A stretch of DNA of 64,000 nucleotides, taken from assembly GCA_030041495.1 (NCBI GenBank), contig JASHNT010000002.1, positions 1-64,000 on the forward strand, written 5' to 3'. The position numbers and the translations under genes were made by a program. This document shows, in pieces, positions 4,100-10,211 of this stretch. This stretch comes from Bryobacteraceae bacterium. Its GTDB lineage: Bacteria; Acidobacteriota; Terriglobia; Bryobacterales; Bryobacteraceae. Below the pieces are notes generated by a model. The model was not told the origin of the DNA, did no database searches, and worked only from the letters and a program-made list of their open reading frames with translations. Position 1 is the stretch's first letter. The number at the start of each line of letters is the position of its first letter.

Positions 4100-5206
4100 A
4101 TGAATGTGCCGAGCCGCACAGTGCCCGCGGCTCCGGCGCCACAAACCTACTCCGCTATGCCTCGCGGGCGAACTTCCCTCTACGGCCGGTTAGCGCCACT
4201 TCTGGCGGTTGCGCTGGCTTGTGCCACCGTTTTGGCGCAGGACTCACCCAACTCCAATTCTGAGAACGGCGAAACCCCCAAGACTGGAGCAACCGTAAAG
4301 TCCGACACCACCATCCGCACCAACGTGCACCTGGTTCTGGTTCCGGTGACCGTCACCGATAACAAGGGCAAATTCATCGACGGTCTTTCCGCCAGCGACT
4401 TCGTCCTTTACGACGACGGAGCTCCGCAGCGCCAGCTTCAGGTCGATTCCTCCGACACCGTGCTCGCGCCCGTGGCCTTGGTCATCGCCATCCAGTGCAG
4501 CGGCATCTCCGAAGCGGCGCTCGAAAAAATCCATAAAGTGGGCGGAATGTTTGAGCCTCTCATCTCCGGCGAAAAGGGCGAAGCCGCCGTGATCGCCTAT
4601 GATGACGACGTTCGCCTGATCCAGGATTTCACGCGAGACTCCTCCAACATCGCGCGCGCCTTTGAGTCCGTGGAGGGCCGCACCATCAAGGTCGGCCGCA
4701 TGCTGGACGCCGTGATGGCGGGCGCGGACATGCTCTCGAAAACCCCCGCCAGTTACCGCCGCATGATGCTGATCCTCGGCGAATCGCGAGACCGCGGCAG
4801 CATGGCCAAACTCGATCAGGCCATCGAAGCCGTGCAGCGCGCCAACGTGACCATGTACCCGGTCACCTACTCGGCTCAAGGCACGGCCTGGACCGCATCC
4901 TCAGACGACACCGTTCCGCTGCCCATCGAACCCGACTACGGCGGAGCCCTCGTCGAGCTCATGCGCATGACCACCCGCAACGCCGCCGACGAGTTCGCCA
5001 AGTGGACCGGCGGCCGCCATCTCTCCTTTGAGCGTCTGCCCGGCTTGCAGGACGCCGTCTCGCGCCTCAGCGGGGAAGTCCACAGCCAGTACCTGTTGAG
5101 CTTCGAGCCTGTTCCCAACTCGAATACCGGCTTGCATCGCATCATCGTCCAGGTGCGAAGGCCCAAGGGCGCGGTGGTACGCGCGCGGCCGGCTTATTGG
5201 CCGTAG
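4100..5206 (+). CDS. VWFA-related acidobacterial secreted protein
   Basis: A 368-residue exported protein. A hydrophobic stretch at about residues 31-46 ending ATVLAQ looks like a signal peptide. The region after VHLVLVPVTVTDNKGKFI is the typical opening of the VWFA-related acidobacterial domain (TIGR03436-like), followed by a von Willebrand A-like core. The usual DxSxS metal site is degenerate: the segment reads ALVIAIQCSGIS. Such proteins are numerous in Acidobacteria, and their role, probably surface protein interaction, is unproven. The start could also be the ATG at 4157, which gives a more usual signal peptide; neither start has a strong SD. Its stop overlaps the convergent protease gene by 13 bases. 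Confidence 0.8.
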   Translation: MNVPSRTVPAAPAPQTYSAMPRGRTSLYGRLAPLLAVALACATVLAQDSPNSNSENGETPKTGATVKSDTTIRTNVHLVLVPVTVTDNKGKFIDGLSASDFVLYDDGAPQRQLQVDSSDTVLAPVALVIAIQCSGISEAALEKIHKVGGMFEPLISGEKGEAAVIAYDDDVRLIQDFTRDSSNIARAFESVEGRTIKVGRMLDAVMAGADMLSKTPASYRRMMLILGESRDRGSMAKLDQAIEAVQRANVTMYPVTYSAQGTAWTASSDDTVPLPIEPDYGGALVELMRMTTRNAADEFAKWTGGRHLSFERLPGLQDAVSRLSGEVHSQYLLSFEPVPNSNTGLHRIIVQVRRPKGAVVRARPAYWP

Positions 5207-6087
5207 AATCCGCCGCCGGTCAGCGGAAGCCACGCCAGCAGCGCGCCGAATAGCGCCAGCAGCGCCGCGAATTCGAGAAATGCGCCGGTGTCCGGCCGGG
5301 GCGCGGGGTCTTTCCTCCAAAACACCCGGTACGCCGCGCCCAGAAGCAGCAACACGAATAAGCCTGAGCGAGTCAAGTACCACAGCAGCGCCGCCAGCCC
5401 GATCCACATCCATCTCTGGCGCAGATCCAGCGCTCGGAATCCCCGTCCTCCATCCAGCGACCACACCGGAATCAGGTTGAACAGGTTGATATACGCCGTC
5501 GCGCGAGCCACCGCCAGCCACACCGGGTGCTGCGGGTACGCCGCCGCCAGCAACAACGCGCTGATTGCGGCCCCCGCGCCCCACAACGGACCGGCCAACC
5601 CGATGCGCGAGTCTTCGCTCACATCCGCGGGACTGTCATACAGGCTCACGAACGCCCCGAACCCGGGAATAAACATCGGAGCGCTGGCGCGCAGCCCGTA
5701 ATGCTTGAGCATCCACACGTGCCCCATCTCGTGGATGTAGATCCCGATCACGAAGCCGGCGGCGAACTTCCAGCCGTACAGCGCCCAATAGACGCCGAAG
5801 AACGCGAACATCGATAGCAACGTCTTCAGTTGCGACAGTCCGACTAACAGGAACTTCGCCTTGGTCAGCAGCAGCAAGATCGCGGTTTTGAACTTCAGCC
5901 CCGCCGCCGCGACGGCCCCGAAGGGCCCGAGCTTCTTGATCCACTTGGGCTGCGGCTTGGCCATGCCCGCCTGCCGTGGATCTGACACCGAGGCGGCCGG
6001 AGGCCGCTCCACGGGCTGGGCACAACGTCCGCAAATGTGGGCTGCCGCCGGGACCGCTGCTCCGCAAGCGGAGCACACTTGCGTCAT
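5194..6087 (-). CDS. Site-2-type (M50) membrane metalloprotease with N-terminal zinc ribbon
   Basis: A 297-residue intramembrane protease homologue. Residues 1-25 form a zinc ribbon (C5-x2-C8 ... C19-x2-C22). Hydrophobic segments follow from about residue 66. The catalytic HExxH is H119-E120-x2-H123 and the third-ligand motif is N204-x2-P207 ... D212-G213 in NLIPVWSLDGG, so both halves of the zinc site are intact. S2P proteases cut membrane-embedded substrates, often anti-sigma factors. The gene follows clpC on the same strand after 18 bases, so it probably belongs to the ABC-ClpN-ClpC operon. Its substrate is unknown. Confidence 0.87.
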   Translation of the reverse strand: MTQVCSACGAAVPAAAHICGRCAQPVERPPAASVSDPRQAGMAKPQPKWIKKLGPFGAVAAAGLKFKTAILLLLTKAKFLLVGLSQLKTLLSMFAFFGVYWALYGWKFAAGFVIGIYIHEMGHVWMLKHYGLRASAPMFIPGFGAFVSLYDSPADVSEDSRIGLAGPLWGAGAAISALLLAAAYPQHPVWLAVARATAYINLFNLIPVWSLDGGRGFRALDLRQRWMWIGLAALLWYLTRSGLFVLLLLGAAYRVFWRKDPAPRPDTGAFLEFAALLALFGALLAWLPLTGGGFYGQ

Positions 6088-6105
6088 CTTGTCTGACCCG
6101 AAGCC

Positions 6106-8592: not shown

Positions 8593-9523
8593 AAGACCTA
8601 CCTTGTTCTGGATCGGAGGGGGGAGACGACAACTGCGCCCGGACTCCCTCCGCCGTCAATCCGCACTCAAGTAAAACTTCGGCTGCCGCACACGTCTCTA
8701 CGCCTAGAATTCCCAACACCAGGTGCATGGGACCGGTATGCTGCCCTAACCGCGCTGCTTCCTGCGCGGCCACTAGAAAAACCTGCTTGCAAACCTCGGT
8801 AAACGGCAGCTCCGTGGGCGACACCACTTCGCGCCGCGGACCCGCCGGCTCCTTTGGACGAGCCTGCAAGGACGCCGCGACTTCCGGGAAACGGTCGCGA
8901 AACTCTTTTTCGATCGCCAGGGCGGCCAACACATCCGTGGTTTCGATGCAGGCGCTGTTACGCCGTGCCGCCTCCCGGCGCGCCAAGGCCGCGGTCCGCA
9001 CGGCATCCTGCAGCACCCCCATCCAGCCTACGCCCCAGTCGGCGCTGAATGGACGCGCACCCAATCCCGGCTCGTGCCGAAGCGATGTGTCCGCCGGCGC
9101 GGTCCGCGCGATCTCCTCGCGCACCTGCTCCAGCCGCAGCCCGCGCTCTCGCAGGATCTCGGCCGCCAGGCACTTTTCTTCCCGCATCAACCCCAGTAAA
9201 TGGTACTGCGTGTCGATTTGCTTGCGCCCCATCCGCTCGGCCTCTTCCGCCGCGTAGGCCAGCACGCGCTTGAGCTGATGACTCAACGGCAAATCCGTCG
9301 ATAAGGAAATCTTCTCCCGCAGTTTGGTCCGAGCTTCGATTTGCCTGCGAATCTCTTCACCGTCTCCAGGTAAGACGCGGAAGCGCTTCATCAACTCACG
9401 ATCCTCGCGTAGCAGCGCCAGCAACACATGCTCGGTCTCGATGTGCGGGCTGCCGAACTGGCTCGCTTCGTAGCGCGCAAAGAAGATCACGCGCCGCGCC
9501 TTCTCGCTGTAGCGCTCAAACAT
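8585..9523 (-). CDS. Clp N-domain protein lacking AAA+ modules (ClpC paralogue)
   Basis: A 312-residue protein made of Clp_N repeats only. Residues 1-142 align closely with the ClpC N-domain encoded next door: both begin [20 protein letters not shown], and the DLPLSH and LNVLAY-type positions match. Residues 168-300 form a second, more divergent Clp_N pair (IETTDVLAALAIE, then MHLVLGILGVE). No Walker motif is present, so it cannot unfold substrates itself. ClpS- or adaptor-like competition, or substrate delivery to ClpC, is an inference. It overlaps both neighbours by 8 bases through ATGTTTGA, which argues for tandem duplication and strict co-translation. Confidence 0.88.
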   Translation of the reverse strand: MFERYSEKARRVIFFARYEASQFGSPHIETEHVLLALLREDRELMKRFRVLPGDGEEIRRQIEARTKLREKISLSTDLPLSHQLKRVLAYAAEEAERMGRKQIDTQYHLLGLMREEKCLAAEILRERGLRLEQVREEIARTAPADTSLRHEPGLGARPFSADWGVGWMGVLQDAVRTAALARREAARRNSACIETTDVLAALAIEKEFRDRFPEVAASLQARPKEPAGPRREVVSPTELPFTEVCKQVFLVAAQEAARLGQHTGPMHLVLGILGVETCAAAEVLLECGLTAEGVRAQLSSPPSDPEQGRSYV

Positions 9524-10211
9524 AGGCGGTCTCCAGCGAGCCCCGGTCGAGCCGCAGCACCCGGTCCGCCCGCTTGGCGAAATTCAAATTGTGCGTGACG
9601 TGAATCGAAGTCAGCCCGCGAGCCCGGTGCAGGTCCTCGAGCAGGTCCATGATCATTTCCCCGGTGCGGTAATCCAGGCTTCCAGTGGGTTCGTCAGCCA
9701 GCAGAACCTGCGGATCGCCGGCCAAAGCCCGCGCCAGCACGACGCGCTGCTGCTCGCCGCCCGACAATTCTCCTGCGCGGTGCCACGCGCGGTTGTGTAG
9801 GCCCACTTCCTCCAACCTCGCCAGCGCTACCGGTTCGGCCGCTTCCTTGCGCACGCCCCGGATCAGCAACGGCATCATCACGTTCTCCAGCGCCGTGAAC
9901 TCGGCCAGAAGCGAGTGAATCTGCCAGACAAATCCCACCTCACGGTTGCGGAAATCCGCCAAGCCGGATTCCGACAGCTTGCAGATGTCTTTCTGCCCGA
10001 AGTATATCTCACCCTCCGTTGGCCTGTCCAGACCGCCAAGCAAGTGCAACAGCGTGCTTTTGCCCGCGCCGGACTCGCCCACCAGCGCCAGCTTTTCGCC
10101 CCGCGCGACTTCAAAATTCAGGCCCACGAAAACCGCCAGGTCCGCCTCGCCGGAACGGTACACCATGCCCAGGTTCACGGCGCGAATCGCTGCTCCCTCC
10201 ATCACTTCCAT
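9516..10211 (-). CDS. ABC transporter ATP-binding protein, LolD/MacB type
   Basis: A 231-residue ATPase of the LolD/MacB/FtsE group. It has Walker A GESGAGKS at 45-52, a Q-loop region GFVWQIHSLLAEFTALENV-like, signature LSGGEQQ at 149-155 and Walker B VLLADEP at 169-175. These ATPases normally drive a FtsX/MacB-fold permease for lipoprotein release or export, or act mechanically. No permease gene is adjacent; the downstream partner is the Clp_N protein, which it overlaps by ATGTTTGA. The permease may be encoded elsewhere. It is the first gene of the leftward operon. Confidence 0.92.
   Translation of the reverse strand: MEVMEGAAIRAVNLGMVYRSGEADLAVFVGLNFEVARGEKLALVGESGAGKSTLLHLLGGLDRPTEGEIYFGQKDICKLSESGLADFRNREVGFVWQIHSLLAEFTALENVMMPLLIRGVRKEAAEPVALARLEEVGLHNRAWHRAGELSGGEQQRVVLARALAGDPQVLLADEPTGSLDYRTGEMIMDLLEDLHRARGLTSIHVTHNLNFAKRADRVLRLDRGSLETAYV

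What the first reader, a model, noticed from the sequence alone, without database searches (positions are those of the whole stretch)
5194..10211. Proteostasis-like operon: ABC ATPase, Clp_N, ClpC and S2P protease
Four leftward genes with 8-base overlaps and a final 18-base gap combine a LolD-like ATPase without permease, an AAA-less Clp_N protein, a ClpC unfoldase and an intramembrane metalloprotease with a zinc ribbon. The set suggests a pathway coupling membrane protein extraction, unfolding and regulated intramembrane cleavage. I do not know this combination as a described system.
Basis: inference. Interest (0 to 1): 0.66.

Follow-up and report, generated by a model that had tools for sequence, protein, structure and literature searches.

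The report
Lipoprotein-export ATPase paired with ClpC unfoldase
Four adjacent genes in an acidobacterium are probably not one new machine: the core is a gene pair seen across much of the phylum, joining the likely motor of the lipoprotein exporter (LolD) to the protein-unfolding ATPase ClpC, with a copied ClpC front end and a membrane protease added locally, and it is striking that the motor stayed with ClpC after its membrane channel gene had moved away.

Summary
The four ORFs, two 8-nt overlaps and the 18-nt gap are real. As a four-gene set the locus is local: all four occur together in 2 of 12 genomes of the genus. The core is older: LolD and ClpC are neighbours in 66 of 66 examined loci of the window's family (ClpN between them in three) and in 54 of 69 examined elsewhere in the phylum; in 47 of those 54 a LolC/E permease gene lies just upstream. 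The 'ATPase without permease' is therefore best read as LolD: the permease gene moved (LolC/E stands alone on another contig), while LolD stayed with ClpC although other neighbours changed. ClpN is a double ClpC N-domain; the LolD-side 8-nt overlaps are all ATGTTTGA, a stop built into ClpC's start. An S2P relative occurs in 7 of 12 genus genomes, near ClpC in five. Best reading: a remodelled Lol operon; LolD works in trans with LolC/E, ClpC with ClpP; ClpN may be an adaptor or decoy, like mycobacterial ClpC2; the S2P link is weak. In family f3, 7 of 9 loci lack the pair. Whether LolD and ClpC act together is untested.

The parts
9516..10211 (-). LolD: likely ATPase subunit of the lipoprotein exporter; the LolC/E permease lies on another contig (G000:C73:104731-105966)
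   Evidence: Best NCBIfam hit LolD, 256.8 bits, below the 307.75 cut-off; best PDB hits are LolD chains, E 3e-61; clades with LolD of the same class, SH-aLRT 99; LolD-type GFVWQ-HSLL-EFTALENV segment
8585..9523 (-). ClpN: AAA-less protein made of two ClpC-type N-terminal domains
   Evidence: Clp_N in Pfam; first half 70% identical to the N-domain of the adjacent ClpC; second half BLASTP E 8e-22 to that N-domain
6106..8592 (-). ClpC: two-AAA unfoldase with a ClpP-type MGF loop
5194..6087 (-). Site-2-protease-like M50 metallopeptidase with an N-terminal zinc ribbon
   Evidence: Peptidase_M50 47.9 bits, cut-off 27.2; HEMGH and LDG motifs
9516..9523 (-). 8-nt overlap ATGTTTGA: LolD stop inside the ClpN start
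8585..8592 (-). 8-nt overlap ATGTTTGA: ClpN stop inside the ClpC start, the same junction as LolD/ClpN
6088..6105 (-). 18-nt gap between ClpC and S2P

Best explanation
The locus is a remodelled lipoprotein-export operon. In many lineages of the phylum the order is lolC/E, lolD, clpC. In the window's family the permease gene has left, and lolD remains next to clpC. Shown by comparison: the pair, its spread, a lone LolC/E elsewhere in the genome, a ClpP gene, a LolA match. Inferred: LolD joins LolC/E in trans and drives ATP-dependent extraction of lipoproteins from the inner membrane to LolA; ClpC feeds unfolded substrates to ClpP. ClpN probably arose by copying of the ClpC N-domain, and its likely job, by analogy with mycobacterial ClpC2, is to bind ligands, adaptors or substrates that dock on the ClpC N-domain, as adaptor or decoy. 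The S2P joined the 3' end within the genus and may cut membrane proteins whose released fragments go to ClpCP; this step is the least supported. Shared dosage or stress control of lipoprotein export and ClpC is the simplest functional meaning of the pair.
For: LolD-like ABC just upstream of ClpC in 66 of 66 family f1 loci (66 loci, window included, from 80 f1 genomes; ClpN between in three) and in 54 of 69 other phylum loci (69 of 92 non-own ClpC loci examined), 47 of the 54 with LolC/E just upstream. In the same 66 f1 loci no other gene family recurs next to the pair more than 4 times on either side, by mechanical ORF choice and BLAST clustering. At E 1e-15 this genome has one clear LolC/E (278.7 bits; the only other match 82.8, in an 850-aa frame), with no LolD-like ABC in the 12-kb stretch around it; six other f1 genomes also have LolC/E without a same-strand LolD nearby. 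Window LolD has the highest LolD score of the seven best-matching own ABC ATPases (256.8 against 200-245); eight LolC/E-linked LolDs of the phylum score alike (250-282). Tree, LolD-type motif. LolA and ClpP matches are in the genome.
Against: The curated LolD cut-off (307.75) is not reached, though the 8 of 8 LolC/E-linked LolDs tested miss it too. Two of the six other LolD-like own ABCs (C132:29309, C100:13977) have no FtsX-domain frame beside them, so they too could in principle serve LolC/E; their best families are MacB and DarD. The bit threshold used for adjacency (140) does not by itself part LolD from own paralogs (142-176 bits); f1 hits are at least 241, but several distant phylum hits are 148-176. 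The deep tree node is 92 and takes in one own paralog on a long branch. In family f3, 7 of 9 examined ClpC loci lack LolD next door, and in G005 LolD, LolC/E and ClpC are far apart. No transcript, protein or interaction data; promoter scan at chance.
Confidence: 0.7

Rival explanations
1. A dedicated four-part proteostasis pathway: an orphan ABC ATPase extracts membrane proteins, ClpN and ClpC unfold them, and the S2P cuts them.
For: Tight spacing of the four genes. S2P relatives lie by ClpC in five genus members and by another Clp gene in four g7 loci (one of the four tested and named ClpB, one seen only as a fragment at a contig end), in two separate S2P clades. S2P followed by a Clp protease is an established relay in E. 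coli: RseP, then ClpXP (PMC10202637, passages).
Against: All four together in 2 of 12 genus genomes; S2P relatives in 21 of 100 order genomes, 12 of the 21 with no Clp gene seen nearby. The ABC is LolD-like and a LolC/E permease is present elsewhere.
Confidence: 0.08
2. Inherited gene order without functional meaning: LolD and ClpC stay together only because the ATGTTTGA overlap locks them.
For: 33 of 66 f1 loci have the exact 8-nt LolD-ClpC overlap; all such LolD-side overlaps are ATGTTTGA.
Against: 32 of 66 f1 loci have no LolD-ClpC overlap, with spacings up to 959 nt (the three largest with ClpN between), yet keep the pair; 51 of 54 other phylum loci with the pair lack an overlap. Neighbours beyond the pair are reshuffled.
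Confidence: 0.25
3. The ABC ATPase has been recruited away from LolC/E and now works with ClpC directly, for example as a soluble regulator or adaptor, while another own ABC serves LolC/E.
For: It stayed with ClpC, not with LolC/E, in the 66 f1 loci; two other LolD-like own ABCs lack an FtsX neighbour.
Against: The LolD-type segment between Q-loop and signature is still conserved in the 66 split LolDs, and no LolD-like gene lies by LolC/E in the seven f1 genomes examined.
Confidence: 0.08

Closest known systems
LolCDE lipoprotein exporter (LolD subunit)
   Same: All ATPase motifs, the LolD-type Q-loop-to-signature segment, best PDB match; LolC/E and LolA matches present in the genome
   Different: The lolD gene is apart from the single LolC/E-type permease gene and next to clpN-clpC; below the curated LolD cut-off
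ClpC of Bacillus / ClpC1 of mycobacteria
   Same: Clp_N, two AAA domains, a hydrophobic-Gly-Phe loop of the ClpP-binding type (meaning of the loop recalled)
   Different: Encoded behind lolD; both repeats of its N-domain keep TEH (residues 30 and 105), but the search for the phosphoarginine-kinase family was uninformative
Mycobacterial ClpC2 (PMC10030653; abstract, one results section and the discussion read)
   Same: AAA-less protein carrying a ClpC-type N-domain; the second half of ClpN weakly matches a ClpC2 chain (9p2p, E 3.9e-6) and a chain named Clp amino terminal domain protein (8b9o, E 1e-4)
   Different: ClpC2 has one ClpC-type domain behind a dimerising helical bundle and represses its own gene; ClpN has two N-domains, starts with the first one, and sits before clpC
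Site-2 protease followed by ClpXP (RseP/RseA relay; PMC10202637, passages)
   Same: M50 intramembrane-type peptidase encoded beside a Clp unfoldase
   Different: Pairing seen in one genus (ClpC) and another (ClpB-like); no anti-sigma factor identified among the four genes

Membership tests
LolD (LolCDE ATPase) | Walker A, Q-loop, ABC signature, Walker B, H-loop intact | tested here: met
LolD (LolCDE ATPase) | Segment GFV-Q-H-LL-EFTALENV around the Q-loop, shared with LolC/E-linked LolDs and not with own paralogs | tested here: met
   66 f1, 54 other ClpC-linked, 6 paralogs; that it contacts LolC/E is inferred
LolD (LolCDE ATPase) | NCBIfam TIGR02211 curated cut-off 307.75 bits | tested here: not met
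   256.8 bits; 8 of 8 LolC/E-linked LolDs tested also miss it, 250-282, so the cut-off does not part this protein from them; still, the name LolD is given as a best reading
LolD (LolCDE ATPase) | A LolC/E permease in the genome without another LolD beside it | tested here: met
   LolC/E itself is below its own cut-off (278.7 of 362.45), as are the best matches in 19 of 20 genomes searched
LolD (LolCDE ATPase) | No other own ABC that could serve LolC/E | tested here: inconclusive
   two other LolD-like own ABCs have no FtsX-domain frame beside them, though their best families are MacB and DarD
LolD (LolCDE ATPase) | Forms a complex with LolC/E and extracts lipoproteins | not testable with these tools
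   needs biochemistry
ClpC unfoldase | Clp_N plus two AAA domains and a ClpP-type loop; ClpP in the genome | tested here: met
   NCBIfam cut-offs for ClpB and ClpA are not met
ClpC2-type AAA-less N-domain protein | ClpC N-domain without AAA | tested here: met
ClpC2-type AAA-less N-domain protein | N-terminal four-helix dimerisation bundle ahead of the ClpC-type domain | tested here: not met
   ClpN starts directly with a ClpC N-domain (bundle described); so it is not filed as ClpC2, only as possibly working like it
Site-2 protease (M50) | M50 domain with HExxH and LDG motifs | tested here: met
Site-2 protease (M50) | Catalytic motifs inside membrane segments | tested here: inconclusive
   crude hydropathy scan found several hydrophobic segments, but neither HEMGH (119) nor LDG (211) lies in one above the threshold
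Site-2 protease (M50) | Intramembrane cleavage of a substrate | not testable with these tools
   no substrate known

The most novel reading that the evidence does not exclude
In Acidobacteriota ClpC is a working partner of lipoprotein export: LolD and ClpC are made together so that ClpCP clears stalled exporters or mis-sorted lipoproteins, or adjusts LolD level to export load. In the window's family this gene link has outlasted that between LolD and its own permease, and ClpN and S2P are later local additions to the same quality-control branch.
Probability: 0.2. Interest if true: 0.7.

Novelty: new variant of a known kind. Interest (0 to 1): 0.42.

Why it matters
Outer-membrane lipoprotein export and ClpCP proteolysis are, to my knowledge, studied apart. 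A gene pair kept across much of a phylum, and kept in one family even after the exporter gene cluster broke up, points to a possible link between the two and gives a testable prediction in harmless soil bacteria. It also explains a class of 'orphan' LolD-like ATPases next to clpC. The AAA-less ClpN adds a case outside mycobacteria of a stand-alone ClpC N-domain, whose repeated gene junctions fit an origin by tandem copying.

Tried and rejected
The first LolC/E profile had antisense ORFs among its 14 seeds (judged by eye from their sequences); I rebuilt it from eight seeds and used that for counts. The first count of LolD adjacency outside the order (51 of 69) missed three loci whose ClpC ORF was extended upstream, with homology-based starts, gives 54 of 69. 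Five f4 loci with LolD but no LolC/E had only 1.5 kb upstream; a longer fetch shows LolC/E in one (G193), while in another (G183) it is about 16 kb away. Of the 15 loci without LolD, seven had 1.5 kb or less of upstream sequence; in one of these (G206) a longer fetch shows LolC/E-LolD about 5 kb upstream of ClpC.

Structure prediction of ClpN alone gave mean pLDDT 37.8 and was not used. The tree of N-domains was unresolved and included one row (L066) that is an AAA fragment, so it says nothing on how often ClpN arose. The phosphoarginine-kinase family search rang in none of the 14 control genomes and is uninformative. PADLOC gave generic ATPase matches for LolD and ClpC and none for ClpN and S2P. 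Promoter and terminator scans were at chance level. Genus member G093 gave no match to the ClpN query at 1e-15, so its ClpC locus was not seen.

Searches for a printed report of the pair. They listed 0, 15 of 46, 1, 15 of 56, 2 and 8 of 67 papers; none of the listed titles or abstract starts reports it. One library only.

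Full report
Observation. Spacing is as stated. ClpN is two ClpC-type N-domains in a row; in the genus relative G032 the corresponding protein shows four Clp_N repeats in Pfam. All 36 LolD-like ORFs that end in an 8-nt overlap with a following ATG end as ATGTTTGA, and ClpN ends on the same letters here and in G032. ClpC starts ATGTTTGA in 92 of 144 loci and ATGTTCGA in 42, with 10 not read. The overlap is thus a built-in stop in the ClpC start, and the repeated junction fits an origin of ClpN by tandem copying of the ClpC start (inference).

What is conserved. I searched 100 genomes of the order (80 of the window's family f1, 2 of f2, 18 of f3). The ClpN query, whose first half is a ClpC N-domain, matched in 96 of 100, mostly inside ClpC-length frames; an S2P relative was found in 21 of 100. 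I examined 66 f1 loci (window included) and 9 f3 loci of ClpC. A LolD-like ABC lies on the same strand just upstream of ClpC in 66 of 66 f1 loci, with ClpN between in three (window, G032, G048), and in 2 of 9 f3 loci. f1 matches score at least 241 bits, above the six own paralogs (142-176). Genes beyond the pair are reshuffled: by mechanical ORF choice and BLAST clustering the commonest recurring family occurs 4 of 66 times on either side. A gene with Clp_N and no complete AAA part lies beside ClpC or LolD in 6 of the 75 loci. All four genes occur together in the window and G032 only, 2 of 12 genus genomes; in one of the 12 (G093) no ClpC locus was seen.

The missing permease. In 119 genomes of the phylum, 93 (own included) had a strong ClpC match. 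Of the 92 others I examined 69 loci. A LolD-like ABC is adjacent in 54 of 69, and in 47 of those 54 a LolC/E-type permease is directly upstream; some of these ABCs score only 148-176 bits, within the range of own paralogs, and rest on the LolC/E neighbour for their identity. So lolCE-lolD-clpC is a common order. In the window genome the one clear LolC/E gene is at G000:C73:104731-105966, with no LolD-like ABC in a 12-kb stretch around it; six other f1 genomes show LolC/E without a same-strand LolD nearby. Of the seven own ABC ATPases compared, the window one has the highest LolD score. Four of the other six have an FtsX-domain frame beside them; C132:29309 and C100:13977 do not, and their best families are MacB and DarD. 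The tree groups the window LolD with those of f1, f3 and family f4 of the same class at SH-aLRT 99; four of the five f4 rows have LolC/E upstream. The deeper node is 92 and holds one paralog on a long branch. The segment around the Q-loop is of one type in the f1 and the other ClpC-linked sets and differs in paralogs. LolCDE structures show LolD engaging coupling helices, C-terminal sequences and elbow helices of LolC and LolE (PMC8333309, passages); conservation of this LolD after the split suggests that it still serves LolC/E (inference). LolA (72.2 bits) and ClpP (271 bits) matches are in the genome.

Results against. The curated LolD cut-off is missed, as it is by 8 of 8 LolC/E-linked LolDs tested. 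Seven of 9 f3 loci have no LolD beside ClpC, and in G005 LolD, LolC/E and ClpC are far apart on one contig. Eight phylum loci with about 3 kb of upstream sequence lack LolD. The pair is common, not universal.

S2P. The gene is near ClpC in five genus members (window, G032, G006, G050, G058; in G058 one ORF lies between), elsewhere in two, and not found in five at E 1e-10. The five form one clade (95/89); four g7 S2Ps near another Clp gene form a second (100/100). The g7 Clp gene is ClpB by NCBIfam in the one locus tested (1387 bits, cut-off 1232); in G049 only a fragment is seen. By eye, a small Cys-rich protein with an FQ-AEF-like start precedes the S2P in about nine loci (loose in L052 and L054; no Pfam family above cut-off in the four tested); the window lacks it. 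That protein, not ClpC, looks like the more usual partner. Two separate placements beside Clp genes are suggestive only.

ClpN. Closest described analogue: mycobacterial ClpC2, which binds cyclomarin A, protects against it and represses its own gene (PMC10030653; abstract, one results section and the discussion read). ClpN differs by having two N-domains and no leading dimer bundle. In the PDB alignments its first repeat keeps the GTEH-like motif and the second has DTQY; that these positions bind phosphoarginine in Bacillus ClpC is recalled, and whether the kinase exists here is unknown. Function as adaptor or decoy is inference.

Verdict. Ordinary parts, an informative arrangement. The four-gene pathway is not supported; the LolD-ClpC pair is old, retained in this family after loss of its permease neighbour, and not reported in the paper listings I saw.

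Noticed in passing
L120, L122, L123, L124, L125: Stand-alone Clp_N proteins with a DinB-like C-terminal half in several relatives (Pfam on L123 only, DinB_2 E 0.0013, below cut-off; the others by eye); a recurring Clp_N fusion of unknown role.
   Followed up: partly
L119:7442-8440: Clp_N protein with a Uma2-like C-terminal part (24.8 bits, below the 27 cut-off).
   Followed up: partly
L098:7149-8093 and L121:6866-8062: Clp_N followed by a degenerate or cut AAA-like region, possible decayed ClpC copies (by eye).
   Followed up: no
L044, L045, L046, L048-L052, L054: Small Cys-rich protein with an FQ-AEF-like start encoded directly before the S2P in many relatives (by eye); no Pfam family above cut-off in the four tested.
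   Followed up: partly
G000 (whole genome): 119 FtsX-domain matches in one genome, many in 800-1000-aa frames.
   Followed up: no
L132:6953-9616 (G000:C112): ClpV/TssH-type ATPase, 1308 bits, hinting at a type VI secretion system.
   Followed up: no
4100-5206 (+): Acidobacterial VWA-domain gene (TIGR03436) overlapping the S2P 3' end convergently by 13 nt.
   Followed up: no
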